IMG/VR virus record: IMGVR_UViG_3300009009_000021
Coordinates: 1 to 45,044 of that record
Origin: a virus
Strand: one strand, 5' to 3'
Length of the DNA stretch: 45,044 nucleotides
The position numbers were made by a program, and so were the translations under genes. Below are positions 18,967-21,870 of the stretch, piece by piece. Position 1 is the first letter of the stretch, and every line of letters starts with the position of its first letter. Under the pieces are notes generated by a model. The model searched no databases and was not told the origin of the DNA. It worked only from the letters and a program-made list of their open reading frames with translations.

Positions 18967-21870
18967 TCACATCCAGTCAAACAGCTGTTTAACAGTGTTA
19001 GAAGAGTCCTCTTCTACAACTGAGGCTTTAATATATTCATCTACCCAATCGTTTGTACTCTTCCCAAAACGTATGAAGGCCTGTGACATGGCATCAACAT
19101 CGTCATCATATTTACCTGAAGGGAAAGCAGCAAACTGCTCTACGAAATCTGATACCCAATCCCCATAATCAGGAAGATGTGTAGCTCCAGACTCCACTTG
19201 GGGTGCTATTGACATAGCTCTGGCTTCTTTGGATTCTCTTGGAGTGAATGGAATGACTATAGGTATCTTGCTTCGTAAAGTATCTATAATAGCTTCACCG
19301 TTAGCTTTGTCTTCTATGAGTAACTCATTCGCATGAGGAAACTTTGCATATATTCTAATACAAGCATTTAAAGTTTCTAAAAATCCCATGCGGCCATGTA
19401 CTCTATCTAATAGATACCTCTTCCCCCCTGCCTTACCCCAAACATGTATTGCTACAAAGTCAGAAGTCTCAGTCTTCTTGAAAGATGCATCTAATGAAAT
19501 GATTATGTACTCTAAGTTGTGAGGTACAACACTATACGTTTTCCACCAATCTCTTTTGAAGATACCCCCCTTCTCTGGAGAAGGCCTCTGTTGGTGCATA
19601 GCATTCCATACCATAGAACCCAATGTCCCCCTTATAACCTTACAAGTTTCAGCAGAAAACTTATTAGGCCATAGAGGCTCATTCTCTTGTCGCTTATCCT
19701 CTTCTAAACCTAAATATGTATGGCCATAGGTTGAAAACTTAGCTACTTGTTGAGTTGTATCCTCTTTTAAATGAGGGAAAGAAAGGATAGACCACTTATC
19801 TGAGTCAGTGCTTAACTTAGCTAGATCAAGTAACCTACCTGCTAAATCACCCTCATGCCACCTAGTAAGAGTAACTAAGATAGAAGCATCCTTCTCTAGC
19901 CTTGTGTAGAGAGTAGATATGTACCAATCGAAAATCTTCTCTTGATATACTTTTGAATATGCTTCCTCTTGATTTTTTATTGGGTCGTCGATTATGGCGC
20001 AATTGTGGCAGAGTATTCCTTCTGCAAAGAAATTATTGTTGTCCTCAACTTGGATGTCATAGACCTTGACCTCTCCAATGCTAACTCTTTCAAATGAGGA
20101 AATGGTGTCTTCTTCGACTTGTGAAGAGTTATATGACAACTTCTGCATAAAGTTATCAAATTCGATGGATTGTTGTTCTCTCTCATGAAGTCTATATGAT
20201 GAACAATTAAAGCATCCGTCGAAGAACATATTGAACATTTCAATAAGTCCCTCTCTAAAATAAAGCCCTTCACCTTTTGAAAAAGAACCGTATAATTCTT
20301 CCCAGAGAGATATCTCGGATTTTTTGAATTCCTCATCCTTCTCGAATGAAGCAAATTCGCACAGTCCCTTGAGCAACATATAGTTAAATGAGATGAAGGT
20401 TGAAAAGAAATCCCACAAGAAGGACATTCTCTCTTCCTTAAAGTCTTTAAATTTAAACTCTCTTTGCATTCTTCGCAGTATTTCCTTGTTTTCTTCAATA
20501 CAAGTTGCCCACAAATACTGCATTTCCTTCGATTCTTTATTGAGTGATGCTCTAAAGAACACTCCCTCCCACAATAAATATCTAGATGTCCCTTTCGATA
20601 GCTCTTTAAAACGTTGTAACGTTCCCTTTGAAAAATCAATCCACAAAAGGTGCATTTTAGATAAGGTTTCAATGGAAGTAAGTCTATCTCCTCTTCTACA
20701 AAATTGAGCTTCATTATAGGAGCTGTTGGCGTAAATCCTATGTTCTTTAGTACATCTAAAATGCTTTCCTGACTTTGTTCTGAATTCAATAAGTTCATTA
20801 GATATCTCTCCCCTAGTAGCTACTACAGGTTTCCATTCACAGATATCCCTCTCATGACTATAAGAAAGAACTAACTCCCCAACTTCTATATCTTGAATGT
20901 TTCGATACCCTTCATAACATAAAATTTTTGTATTGCCAACAAAGCAATTGGCGCCCATTCCTGTAATTCCACTACCTACACCAGACCCTCTATATACTCC
21001 CTTATGCCCTACAACCTCAAAAATCTCTGAGTTTCTTAGCCAAGTACCTTGTGCTACAGTCCTTGTATTCTTAGAAAAAAGTTTTGTGTTTGGAAATACT
21101 TCCTCATACTCAGGAGAGTCTATTATACGTTGCACATCTCTATTCATCCTTGACGCTAAGTCTGATGAGTAAGAACATGCTATGATCTGAGCATTTGGAT
21201 TCTTTCCTAAAATATATGCTGGAAGCCTACGTGATACTAGTTCTGAATTATGAGTAGGTATTAGCATTCCCCCAACCAAGTAAAGACCATCAGGAGAATC
21301 TACTTGAATACAATTCCCTAACTCCTGTTCACTACCTTCAAGTCTTCTAACAGATTTTATCCCTATCCTTATCCCCAAAGGTAGTTTATACCGATTTTTA
21401 AGCTCCTCAAGTTTAGTAACACTTAAAAAGAAGTTAGTTTCTACAGTTCTATATGTTTGAAGCTCTTTATCAAAGATAGTCCACTCATGATTCTCATGGC
21501 ATTTTATAATCTGCCCATTAGTAAACTCTATCTCTACATCTGCTATAGTCTTTTCCGAGAGAGCTATTACTCTTACCGGCCTACCTGATGGATGATATAC
21601 ATAATCACCTACTGACAGATCACCATGAGTCTTCCAACCATTTGGGGTACGCATTAAAGTAGAATCAGCTAGTTGCTTACCTGTCCTCGGTGGTAAAAAT
21701 ACCATTAATCTTTTTATGTTACCATTAACAAACTCATCTAAATATTTACAAAGAAGCCTATGATGCCAATTCACTTCATAATCAGGCTTTGTATACCTTG
21801 CAAAATTTAACAGGGATCTTCTCGCTTTTTCTAAAGCCAACTCTTTGCTTGTGTAGTCTAACTTATACAT
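18967..21870 (-). CDS. Terminase large subunit precursor with two inteins
   Basis: 967-residue precursor; removing two inteins (66-208 and 309-623) leaves about 509 residues, normal for TerL. It is the ATP-driven packaging motor and DNA-cleaving nuclease. Exteins: Walker A PPRTGK/SELVSRR split after Lys65, GSGITGMGAN joined to CAIIDDP (Walker B, split just before Cys624), TLTRWHEGD (coupling motif), and the RNase H-like nuclease acids in ISLDASFK, LLIEDKANG and YDDDVDA. The terminase is inactive until both inteins are spliced, since each interrupts an ATPase motif. Weak RBS (TTAGAG). It follows TerS by nine bases. An HNH gene overlaps it in another frame. Confidence 0.95.
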   Translation of the reverse strand: MYKLDYTSKELALEKARRSLLNFARYTKPDYEVNWHHRLLCKYLDEFVNGNIKRLMVFLPPRTGKQLADSTLMRTPNGWKTHGDLSVGDYVYHPSGRPVRVIALSEKTIADVEIEFTNGQIIKCHENHEWTIFDKELQTYRTVETNFFLSVTKLEELKNRYKLPLGIRIGIKSVRRLEGSEQELGNCIQVDSPDGLYLVGGMLIPTHNSELVSRRLPAYILGKNPNAQIIACSYSSDLASRMNRDVQRIIDSPEYEEVFPNTKLFSKNTRTVAQGTWLRNSEIFEVVGHKGVYRGSGVGSGITGMGANCFVGNTKILCYEGYRNIQDIEVGELVLSYSHERDICEWKPVVATRGEISNELIEFRTKSGKHFRCTKEHRIYANSSYNEAQFCRRGDRLTSIETLSKMHLLWIDFSKGTLQRFKELSKGTSRYLLWEGVFFRASLNKESKEMQYLWATCIEENKEILRRMQREFKFKDFKEERMSFLWDFFSTFISFNYMLLKGLCEFASFEKDEEFKKSEISLWEELYGSFSKGEGLYFREGLIEMFNMFFDGCFNCSSYRLHEREQQSIEFDNFMQKLSYNSSQVEEDTISSFERVSIGEVKVYDIQVEDNNNFFAEGILCHNCAIIDDPIKNQEEAYSKVYQEKIFDWYISTLYTRLEKDASILVTLTRWHEGDLAGRLLDLAKLSTDSDKWSILSFPHLKEDTTQQVAKFSTYGHTYLGLEEDKRQENEPLWPNKFSAETCKVIRGTLGSMVWNAMHQQRPSPEKGGIFKRDWWKTYSVVPHNLEYIIISLDASFKKTETSDFVAIHVWGKAGGKRYLLDRVHGRMGFLETLNACIRIYAKFPHANELLIEDKANGEAIIDTLRSKIPIVIPFTPRESKEARAMSIAPQVESGATHLPDYGDWVSDFVEQFAAFPSGKYDDDVDAMSQAFIRFGKSTNDWVDEYIKASVVEEDSSNTVKQLFDWM
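19992..20798 (-). CDS. HNH homing endonuclease encoded out of frame inside TerL intein 2
   Basis: 268 residues in the +1 frame relative to TerL. Three zinc-ribbon Cys sets (C49/52 with C76/80; C93/96 with C108/111; C125/128 with C142/146) precede a complete HNH domain: CSIC (188-191), IVHHIDF with His201, NNNPSNLITLC with Asn213, and CRSCH with His222, all catalytic or zinc residues present. This is the usual architecture of phage HNH homing enzymes. GGGGAGAG (20806-20813) sits seven bases before the ATG, a strong RBS inside the intein. Conserved domains fall between intein blocks B and F, where endonucleases normally sit, but out of frame. The last 28 residues overprint blocks F/G. Confidence 0.85.
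   Translation of the reverse strand: MNLLNSEQSQESILDVLKNIGFTPTAPIMKLNFVEEEIDLLPLKPYLKCTFCGLIFQRERYNVLKSYRKGHLDIYCGRECSLEHHSIKNRRKCSICGQLVLKKTRKYCEECKESLNLKTLRKRECPSCGISFQPSSHLTICCSRDCANLLHSRRMRNSKNPRYLSGKNYTVLFQKVKGFILERDLLKCSICSSTDALIVHHIDFMRENNNPSNLITLCRSCHITLHKSKKTPFPHLKELALERSRSMTSKLRTTIISLQKEYSATIAP
20002..20946 (-). other. Intein 2 in TerL (class 1) at the Walker B region
   Basis: 315 residues (309-623 of the precursor). Cys1 opens CFVGNTKILCYEGYRNI (block A), CTKEHRI is block B with Thr and His, KVYDIQVEDNNNFFAEG is block F, and ILCHN ends with the His-Asn dyad before Cys+1. All class 1 splicing residues are intact. Residues about 400-590 show no LAGLIDADG or in-frame HNH motif and look like an overprint of the HNH gene read in another frame. 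Extein junction GMGAN/CAIIDD is seamless. Confidence 0.9.
21247..21675 (-). other. Intein 1 in TerL (class 3-type mini-intein, Gln1) in Walker A
   Basis: 143 residues (66-208). It starts QLADSTLMRTPNGWKTH: Gln at position 1, so no N-terminal nucleophile. Block B reads CHENHEW with Trp130 two after the block B His; block F reads GNCIQV with Cys187 where class 1 inteins have Asp; the end is IPTHN with Thr206 before His-Asn. This is the Trp/Cys/Thr triplet that defines class 3 inteins. Ser209 (+1) completes the P-loop GKS. No endonuclease domain. Class assignment follows known family rules. Confidence 0.9.

What the first reader, a model, noticed from the sequence alone, without database searches (positions are those of the whole stretch)
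21247..21675. Gln1 class 3 mini-intein in the terminase P-loop
The intein starts with Gln and carries the Trp (block B+2), Cys (block F) and Thr (before His-Asn) triplet of class 3 inteins, whose first step uses the block F Cys. It splits Walker A between Lys and Ser. Class 3 inteins have a proposed phage origin, so an ATPase-motif example with Gln1 is informative.
Basis: partly seen in the sequence, partly recalled or inferred. Interest (0 to 1): 0.75.

Follow-up and report, generated by a model that had tools for sequence, protein, structure and literature searches.

The report
Terminase intein pair, one hiding endonuclease
The reported self-splicing insert in this phage's DNA-packaging motor is a real but ordinary class 3 intein; a second intein in the same gene carries a DNA-cutting enzyme written in a different reading frame of the same DNA, an arrangement found in dozens of other phages and apparently missed by annotation.

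Summary
TerL (18967..21870, minus) holds a 143-aa intein at 21247..21675 between Lys65 and Ser209 of Walker A, with Gln1, Trp130, Cys187 and Thr206-His-Asn. Sequence, motif and fold tests all place it with class 3 inteins (AlphaFold pLDDT 92.5; best fold match the class 3 DnaB inteins, Z 20, rmsd 1.6 A). It is ordinary: TerL P-loop class 3 inteins are well known, and Gln1 recurs at this site in other phages. Splicing itself was not tested.

The larger result lies next door. The same TerL carries a second, Cys1 intein (20002..20946) at Walker B. A 268-aa zinc-ribbon HNH endonuclease ORF (19992..20798) is overprinted on it in the +1 frame, with its own Shine-Dalgarno. The same arrangement at the same site occurs in 53 viral contigs (Gordonia phage Clown among them) and in Synechococcus phage S-EIV1. 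Selection on the HNH frame, and on keeping the intein frame stop-free, is unambiguous. Other HNHs sit out of frame (+1 or +2) in other TerL inteins. The nearest published case, the ShiLan element, has no splicing domain; an actinophage intein preprint that I could not read may describe similar inteins.

The parts
18967..21870 (-). terminase large subunit ORF, 967 aa, with two inteins; spliced product 509 aa
   Evidence: TIGR01630 above cutoff; intein-free homologue vir524 47% identical over 92% of the extein
21247..21675 (-). intein 1: class 3 mini-intein, 143 aa, Gln1, in Walker A between Lys65 and Ser209
21673..21675 (-). Gln1 of intein 1 (residue 66)
21481..21489 (-). block B His128 - Glu - Trp130 (B:10 and B:12)
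   Evidence: both invariant in A2
21310..21312 (-). block F Cys187 (F:4), expected first nucleophile
   Evidence: aligns with the block F Cys of 6bs8 and 6rix
21247..21255 (-). Thr206-His207-Asn208 (G:5 to G:7), C-terminal splice junction
21244..21246 (-). Ser209, +1 residue, hydroxyl residue of Walker A
20002..20946 (-). intein 2: Cys1 intein, 315 aa, at Walker B (GAN|C...CHN|CAIIDDP)
   Evidence: Pfam Intein_splicing 43.4 bits against cutoff 35.8; TIGR01445 and TIGR01443 above cutoff; model has residues 1-100 and 275-315 at pLDDT about 80-97 in a Hint fold
20128..20619 (-). intein 2 linker (about residues 110-273): no confident fold in the intein frame, codes the HNH in the +1 frame
   Evidence: pLDDT about 37-52; host-frame identity in this region equals that of the third frame
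19992..20798 (-). HNH homing endonuclease ORF, 268 aa, +1 frame relative to TerL, ends just past the intein 2 C-junction
   Evidence: PF01844 above cutoff; IscB HNH region 4e-11; phrog_1271 1e-20
20118..20237 (-). HNH catalytic motif (HNH residues 188-227: CxxC, VHHID, N, N, CxxCH, H)
20808..20814 (-). Shine-Dalgarno AGGGGAG, 9 nt before the HNH ATG, inside intein 2 codons for T-R-G-E
   Evidence: duplex energy -8.3 kcal/mol; 1.7% of 1108 minus-strand ATGs score as well; median of 30 gene starts -6.4

Best explanation
This TerL gene makes a precursor with two inteins that must both excise to give an active packaging ATPase. Intein 1 sits in Walker A and should splice by the class 3 route: Cys187 attacks the Lys65-Gln66 bond, the acyl group passes to Ser209, Asn208 cyclises, and Lys and Ser of Walker A are joined. 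It has no endonuclease. Intein 2 sits at Walker B and is a Cys1 intein. Its splicing domain is coded by the two ends of the insert. The DNA between them, read in the +1 frame, codes a separate zinc-ribbon HNH endonuclease; read in the intein frame it is an unconserved, unstructured but stop-free linker. The HNH, probably translated from its own start site inside the intein, would cut intein-less TerL genes at the Walker B site and so spread the insert by homing, while splicing keeps the host gene working. Shown by computation: positions, motifs, folds, conservation, frame-specific selection, the stop-free intein frame, HNH loss in some alleles. Inferred: splicing, HNH translation, cutting and homing.
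For: Intein 1: exact motifs, class 3 DnaB inteins in PDB at 7e-15, fold Z 20.1 and rmsd 1.6 A over 126 residues to 6rix, 19.9 to 6bs8, pLDDT 92.5. Intein 2 and HNH: family models for both frames; in 53 of 53 viral contigs with a closely related HNH, the HNH is wholly overlapped by a long ORF in the same relative frame while the third frame is closed, whereas the more distant HNHs, which lack this arrangement, have neither frame open; all are at the same Walker B junction. In the HNH core, 434 of 435 sequence pairs differ most at HNH codon position 3; amino-acid identity is 0.44 in the HNH frame, 0.24 in the intein frame and 0.24 in the third frame; towards the intein ends the most variable position returns to intein codon position 3. 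Codon shuffles that keep the HNH protein expect 338 intein-frame stops over 30 loci; 0 are seen; the third frame has 383 against 309 expected. 25 invariant HNH-frame columns, nearly all Cys, His or Asn of zinc and active sites. HNH and splicing-domain distances correlate at r = 0.93. Alleles that lost the HNH keep the intein frame open (L062, L064, L130, L132-L134).
Against: No biochemistry: neither splicing nor cutting is shown. The HNH start is not conserved; in some relatives (L031 group, L051, L052) no start codon with a good Shine-Dalgarno lies near the HNH, so internal initiation is secure only as a likelihood, best for the window. Intein-less and intein-bearing TerLs compared here are distant relatives, so homing is inferred from the enzyme type and from the sporadic distribution, not from a fresh invasion event.
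Confidence: 0.85

Rival explanations
1. The HNH is not started internally: ribosomes shift frame inside intein 2 and make a TerL-N-intein-N-HNH fusion.
For: No single conserved HNH start or Shine-Dalgarno across the family; some loci lack a good start near the zinc ribbon. The +1 frame is open through most of intein 2 in many loci.
Against: The window has an ATG with a Shine-Dalgarno stronger than its median gene. In L007 a +1-frame stop at codon 86 leaves only a short stretch before the first zinc Cys, with ATG 11 codons upstream. No systematic search for a slippery site was made.
Confidence: 0.2
2. The HNH ORF is a dead remnant or a chance open frame, and intein 2 is only a large-loop intein.
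For: Two relatives have the HNH frame interrupted (L062, L064) and four more have lost it, so decay does occur.
Against: Invariant active-site and zinc residues in 25 sequences, position-3 variation in 434 of 435 pairs, HNH models above cutoff in the window.
Confidence: 0.04
3. Intein 1 no longer splices, or splices by direct attack of Ser209 (class 2-like) rather than through Cys187.
For: Nothing specific; the Pfam and NCBIfam intein models miss it. Two relatives (L087, L091) have Ser in place of the block F Cys.
Against: All catalytic residues are intact and the extein on both sides is a complete terminase, which needs Walker A. In proven class 3 inteins block F Cys mutation abolishes splicing (PMC5222942).
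Confidence: 0.07
4. The second insert is an intron-like or ShiLan-type element rather than an intein.
For: An out-of-frame HNH without splicing domains is known in a phage methylase (PMC11855218).
Against: Intein 2 has complete N- and C-terminal splicing blocks above curated cutoffs, invariant Cys1, block B His69 and last Asn, and a confident Hint fold.
Confidence: 0.02

Closest known systems
Class 3 inteins of mycobacterial DnaB (M. smegmatis DnaBi1 6bs8, M. chimaera DnaB1 6rix) and of phage TerL Walker A (TerL1-a/b of mycobacteriophages, Gordonia phage Verity, Klebsiella phage K64-1)
   Same: Intein 1: WCT triplet, His B:10, no nucleophile at position 1, Ser or Thr +1, same fold, same P-loop site
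   Different: Gln1 rather than the residue found in each; no endonuclease, whereas most class 3 inteins have LAGLIDADG (82.5%, PMC7891396)
TerL P-loop class 3 inteins of Bacteroides phages BF486P1 and BK649P1
   Same: Same site, Gln1, W, C, THN, Ser +1; 43% identical over residues 1-86
   Different: They carry an in-frame LAGLIDADG; intein 1 is the mini form
ShiLan domain (Arsenault et al. 2025, PMC11855218)
   Same: HNH with zinc fingers in another frame of a stop-free insert in a phage gene
   Different: ShiLan has no splicing domain and is thought to stay in the protein; it is in a methylase, and its HNH is in the third frame. Intein 2 is a real intein
Inteins with an in-frame homing endonuclease (LAGLIDADG, or HNH as in L161 and L164)
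   Same: Same biological logic: splicing domain plus endonuclease, same place in the Hint fold
   Different: Here the endonuclease is a separate protein in a shifted frame
Split inteins with a free-standing endonuclease between the halves (fractured genes; recalled: Dassa et al. 2009); seen here in Vibrio phages 1.238.A and 1.245.O TerL
   Same: Endonuclease made apart from the intein, placed where the in-frame domain would be
   Different: Here the gene is not broken; both proteins share the same bases
Gosselin, Arsenault and Gogarten, bioRxiv 2025.01.02.630785, actinobacteriophage inteins with 'non-canonical architecture'
   Same: PMC11855218 cites it for overlapping reading frames in actinobacteriophages; Gordonia phage Clown could be in its scope
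   Different: Not held in the library, so what it reports is unknown to me; it would cover actinophages only

Membership tests
class 3 intein (intein 1) | Trp at block B:12 | tested here: met
   Trp130, two after His128; invariant in 14 sequences
class 3 intein (intein 1) | Cys at block F:4 | tested here: met
   Cys187 aligned with the block F Cys of 6bs8 and 6rix
class 3 intein (intein 1) | Thr at G:5, before His-Asn | tested here: met
   Thr206-His207-Asn208
class 3 intein (intein 1) | no Cys, Ser or Thr at position 1; Ser or Thr at +1 | tested here: met
   Gln66 and Ser209
class 3 intein (intein 1) | sequence and fold group with proven class 3 inteins | tested here: met
   E 7e-15 to 6bs8; Z 20.1 to 6rix
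class 3 intein (intein 1) | block F branched thioester and loss of splicing on Cys mutation | not testable with these tools
   needs expression and mutagenesis
class 1 intein (intein 2) | Cys1, block B His, C-terminal Asn, Cys +1, Hint fold | tested here: met
   Cys1, His69, Asn315 invariant in 24 sequences; models above cutoff; fold
HNH endonuclease (ORF 19992..20798) | HNH motif and zinc-binding Cys pairs | tested here: met
   PF01844 24.0 bits against cutoff 21.4; phrog_1271 1e-20; invariant columns
HNH endonuclease (ORF 19992..20798) | cuts the intein-less target and promotes homing | not testable with these tools
   needs cleavage and co-infection assays
inteins with in-frame homing endonuclease | endonuclease translated as a domain of the intein | tested here: not met
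   HNH lies in the +1 frame in the window and in all 53 contigs
ShiLan-type out-of-frame HNH insert | out-of-frame HNH in an insert without splicing domains | tested here: not met
   Out-of-frame HNH present, but the insert has intein splicing blocks
split intein with free-standing endonuclease | host gene broken into two ORFs | tested here: not met
   TerL is one open frame of 967 codons

The most novel reading that the evidence does not exclude
Phage terminase inteins have repeatedly put their homing endonuclease in a second reading frame of the splicing-domain gene. One stretch of DNA then serves two proteins with separate fates: a cis-acting splicing element and a trans-acting HNH with its own start. 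This is a widespread third architecture of inteins, beside in-frame endonuclease and endonuclease-free forms, and explains some large inteins with an apparently structureless linker. It is conserved at Walker B (+1) in phages of 38-67% GC, recurs at the TerL nuclease motif (+1, another HNH), and occurs in the +2 frame in Tetrasphaera TJE1, Acinetobacter Highwayman and a Rhodobacteraceae phage.
Probability: 0.8. Interest if true: 0.72.

Novelty: new variant of a known kind. Interest (0 to 1): 0.6.

Why it matters
Intein 1 alone adds one more member to a large class. Intein 2 matters more. Genome annotation reads one frame per stretch, so the endonuclease of these inteins is invisible and the insert looks like an intein with a meaningless 200-residue loop; inteins called 'endonuclease-free' or 'degenerate' may be active homing elements. 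It also gives a natural case of same-strand overlapping genes in which one frame is constrained mainly to stay open, kept in many lineages. Decay of the HNH does not break the host protein, and alleles with and without it exist, so the homing cycle can be followed. Cultured phages with the arrangement are on record (Gordonia Clown, Synechococcus S-EIV1, Tetrasphaera TJE1), so the idea can be tested at the bench.

Tried and rejected
Gln1 as a rarity: rejected, it recurs at the same site. Class 1 or 2 chemistry for intein 1: no nucleophile at position 1 and a full WCT set, so not favoured. A link by descent between intein 1 and the DnaB intein of the same genome, suggested by a PHROG hit to terminase families: no meaningful similarity, and the DnaB intein is a Cys1 intein with a LAGLIDADG-type domain. 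Frame shift from a sequencing error: rejected, 53 contigs and several finished phage genomes share it. A conserved HNH start codon or Shine-Dalgarno across the family: looked for, not found. Two alignment calls failed on wrong coordinates. The actinobacteriophage intein preprint is not held. No fold of the HNH itself was predicted (the two structure jobs went to the inteins).
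Full report
OBSERVATION. The ORF 18967..21870 on the minus strand is a terminase large subunit of 967 aa. Removing residues 66-208 and 309-623 leaves a 509-aa terminase with Terminase_6N and Terminase_6C domains above their cutoffs. The first insert is 21247..21675 exactly as reported, 143 aa, beginning with Gln66 after ...PPRTGK and ending Thr206-His207-Asn208 before Ser209.

WHAT INTEIN 1 IS. Class 3 inteins are defined by Trp B:12, Cys F:4 and Thr G:5, no nucleophile at position 1, and Ser or Thr at +1 (PMC5222942; PMC5050341). All are met. phmmer against PDB sequences gives the class 3 DnaB inteins of M. smegmatis (6bs8, E 7e-15) and M. chimaera (6rix, 2e-14), with the block F Cys and the THN aligned. 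In an alignment of 14 TerL P-loop inteins His63, Trp65, Thr141, His142 and Asn143 (intein numbering) are invariant. The predicted structure (pLDDT 92.5, pTM 0.84) has its best matches in the same class 3 structures: Foldseek E 4e-11, Z 20.1, rmsd 1.6 A over 126 residues to 6rix. The class 3 mechanism (Cys187 attacks first, then Ser209, then Asn208 cyclisation) is inferred from these relatives.

HOW ORDINARY IT IS. tblastn finds relatives of intein 1 in 384 phage records, and many of the best are in terminases. At the same Walker A site the first residue is Gln in Bacteroides phages BF486P1 and BK649P1 and in contigs L085, L088 and L010, otherwise Leu, Gly, Lys, Asn, Ala or Ser. 1701 class 3 inteins were listed in 2020 (PMC7891396). 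Being a mini form is the less common state: most of its P-loop relatives here are 320-348 aa, and the in-frame LAGLIDADG is visible in the alignment consensus; L006 is another mini, 159 aa, with Lys1.

THE SECOND INTEIN. The same ORF carries a Cys1 intein at 20002..20946, inserted directly before Walker B (GAN|C...CHN|CAIIDDP). Intein models are above cutoff. Intein-free relatives show the empty site, for example Aggregatibacter phage S1249 GADIAIIDDP. The predicted structure is confident for residues 1-100 and 275-315, which form the Hint fold, and has pLDDT near 40 for most of the stretch between.

THE HIDDEN HNH. In the +1 frame of that unstructured stretch lies ORF 19992..20798, 268 aa, with PF01844 HNH above cutoff, phrog_1271 HNH endonuclease at 1e-20 and the IscB HNH region at 4e-11. 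It starts 49 codons into the intein and ends ten bases past the intein's last codon, so it also overlaps the C-terminal splicing blocks. An ATG with the Shine-Dalgarno AGGGGAG stands at its head (duplex -8.3 kcal/mol; only 1.7% of the 1108 minus-strand ATGs are as good; the median of 30 gene starts is -6.4).

CONSERVATION. The best phage relatives of the HNH are in the terminase genes of Gordonia phage Clown and Synechococcus phage S-EIV1, again in the +1 frame of an intein at the same site. A scan of viral contigs returned 80 HNH loci. In 53 of them, the closest relatives, a long TerL frame covers the whole HNH in the same relative frame and the third frame is closed by stops; the remaining, more distant HNHs have neither other frame open. 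All 53 have the C-junction ...N|C(x)(I/L)(I/V)DD. Removing near-copies leaves 31 distinct inteins (97% nucleotide identity) including the window and S-EIV1. The loci span 38-67% GC. A contig filed under Fictibacillus arsenicus has it too, and a separate scan with the splicing domain added L145, L153 and L154.

SELECTION IN TWO FRAMES. In the HNH core, differences concentrate at HNH codon position 3 in 434 of 435 pairs; amino-acid identity is 0.44 in the HNH frame, 0.24 in the intein frame and 0.24 in the third frame. In the first 80 residues of the intein, and more weakly in the last 40, the most variable position is intein codon position 3. So coding constraint passes from the intein frame to the HNH frame and back. 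Yet the intein frame stays open: codon shuffles that preserve the HNH protein predict 338 intein-frame stops over 30 loci; none occurs; the third frame shows no depletion (383 against 309). These counts treat related sequences as separate, but the effect holds within single loci: for the window 15.0 stops are expected, at least 8 in every one of 2000 shuffles, and 0 are seen. HNH distances follow splicing-domain distances (r 0.93) more closely than TerL distances (r 0.77), as expected if the two travel together.

HNH LOSS. L062 and L064 have a broken HNH frame and a smaller intein (L062, 211 aa); L130, L132, L133 and L134 carry 181-185 aa alleles at the same site without an HNH. The intein frame is intact in all. 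This is the decay expected after a homing element has become fixed.

MORE THAN ONE FAMILY. At the TerL nuclease motif (DDHA|C...SHN|CDALRY) L162, L174, L179, L180 and L185 have a different HNH (HNH_3, E 4e-17 for L174) in the +1 frame, and L157 has a 136-aa allele without one. L158, Tetrasphaera phage TJE1, Acinetobacter phage Highwayman and Rhodobacteraceae phage LS06-2018-MD07 have it in the +2 frame. Across eleven such extra loci 0 intein-frame stops are seen against 57 expected, though for L158, TJE1 and LS06 few were expected. In-frame HNH inteins also exist (L161, L164), and in Vibrio phages 1.238.A and 1.245.O the gene is split around a free-standing HNH. The endonuclease thus seems to have entered out of frame more than once; the number of independent origins was not tested by trees.

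MECHANISM. Both inteins must leave TerL to restore Walker A and Walker B. The HNH is made separately, most likely from the internal start in the window; a frameshift product is not excluded, since the start is not conserved across relatives. It would cut intein-less TerL at Walker B and drive copying of the whole insert. Splicing, HNH synthesis, cutting and homing are inferred.

LITERATURE AND NOVELTY. Full-text searches found one close precedent, the ShiLan element (PMC11855218): an out-of-frame HNH in a phage methylase, without splicing domains. That paper cites a preprint on actinobacteriophage inteins with 'non-canonical architecture' (bioRxiv 2025.01.02.630785), also for overlapping frames in these phages; it is not held. 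It may already report out-of-frame endonucleases inside inteins of actinophages. No held paper describes it. Intein 1 is a new member of a known kind; intein 2 with its HNH is a new variant of a known kind, with that caveat. The overall score reflects mainly intein 2; intein 1 alone would score about 0.2.

Noticed in passing
window 40690..41658 (-), in ORF 40009..42282: Third intein of the genome: 323 aa, Cys1, THN|T, in the P-loop of a DnaB-like helicase (VPKGGK|C...HN|TTFG), with an in-frame Hom_end (LAGLIDADG-type) domain. So the genome holds one endonuclease-free intein, one with an out-of-frame HNH and one with an in-frame endonuclease.
   Followed up: partly
L087:1157-2164 and L091:224-1231: TerL P-loop inteins otherwise like class 3 (W, THN, Thr +1) but with Ser in place of the block F Cys (GNSISVD); L091 also has Leu1, so the first nucleophile is unclear.
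   Followed up: no
L190 and L191 (Vibrio phages 1.245.O and 1.238.A): TerL appears split: an N-terminal part ending in intein sequence, a free-standing HNH ORF, then a hint-domain ORF, a likely split intein with an intervening endonuclease.
   Followed up: partly
L006 and L010: The same pair of TerL inteins as in the window (P-loop class 3 plus Walker B intein with out-of-frame HNH) occurs in two other viral contigs; L006 is a mini with Lys1, L010 has Gln1 with LAGLIDADG.
   Followed up: partly
window 37217..40012 (-): Family A DNA polymerase with an N-terminal uracil-DNA-glycosylase-superfamily domain in one ORF (PF03167 at 36-167, PF00476 at 477-856).
   Followed up: no
window 17698..18880 (-): Three tandem, closely similar small ORFs (116, 114 and 114 aa) directly downstream of TerL, apparently recent duplicates; the one searched had no PHROG match.
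   Followed up: no
window 25191..27515 (-): A cluster of DNA-methyltransferase-like ORFs (D12 class, a ParB/methyltransferase-like ORF, and N6_N4_Mtase).
   Followed up: no
L165:4001-4765: A TerL Walker B intein of 255 aa with a shorter (129-codon open) out-of-frame HNH, perhaps a reduced form.
   Followed up: no
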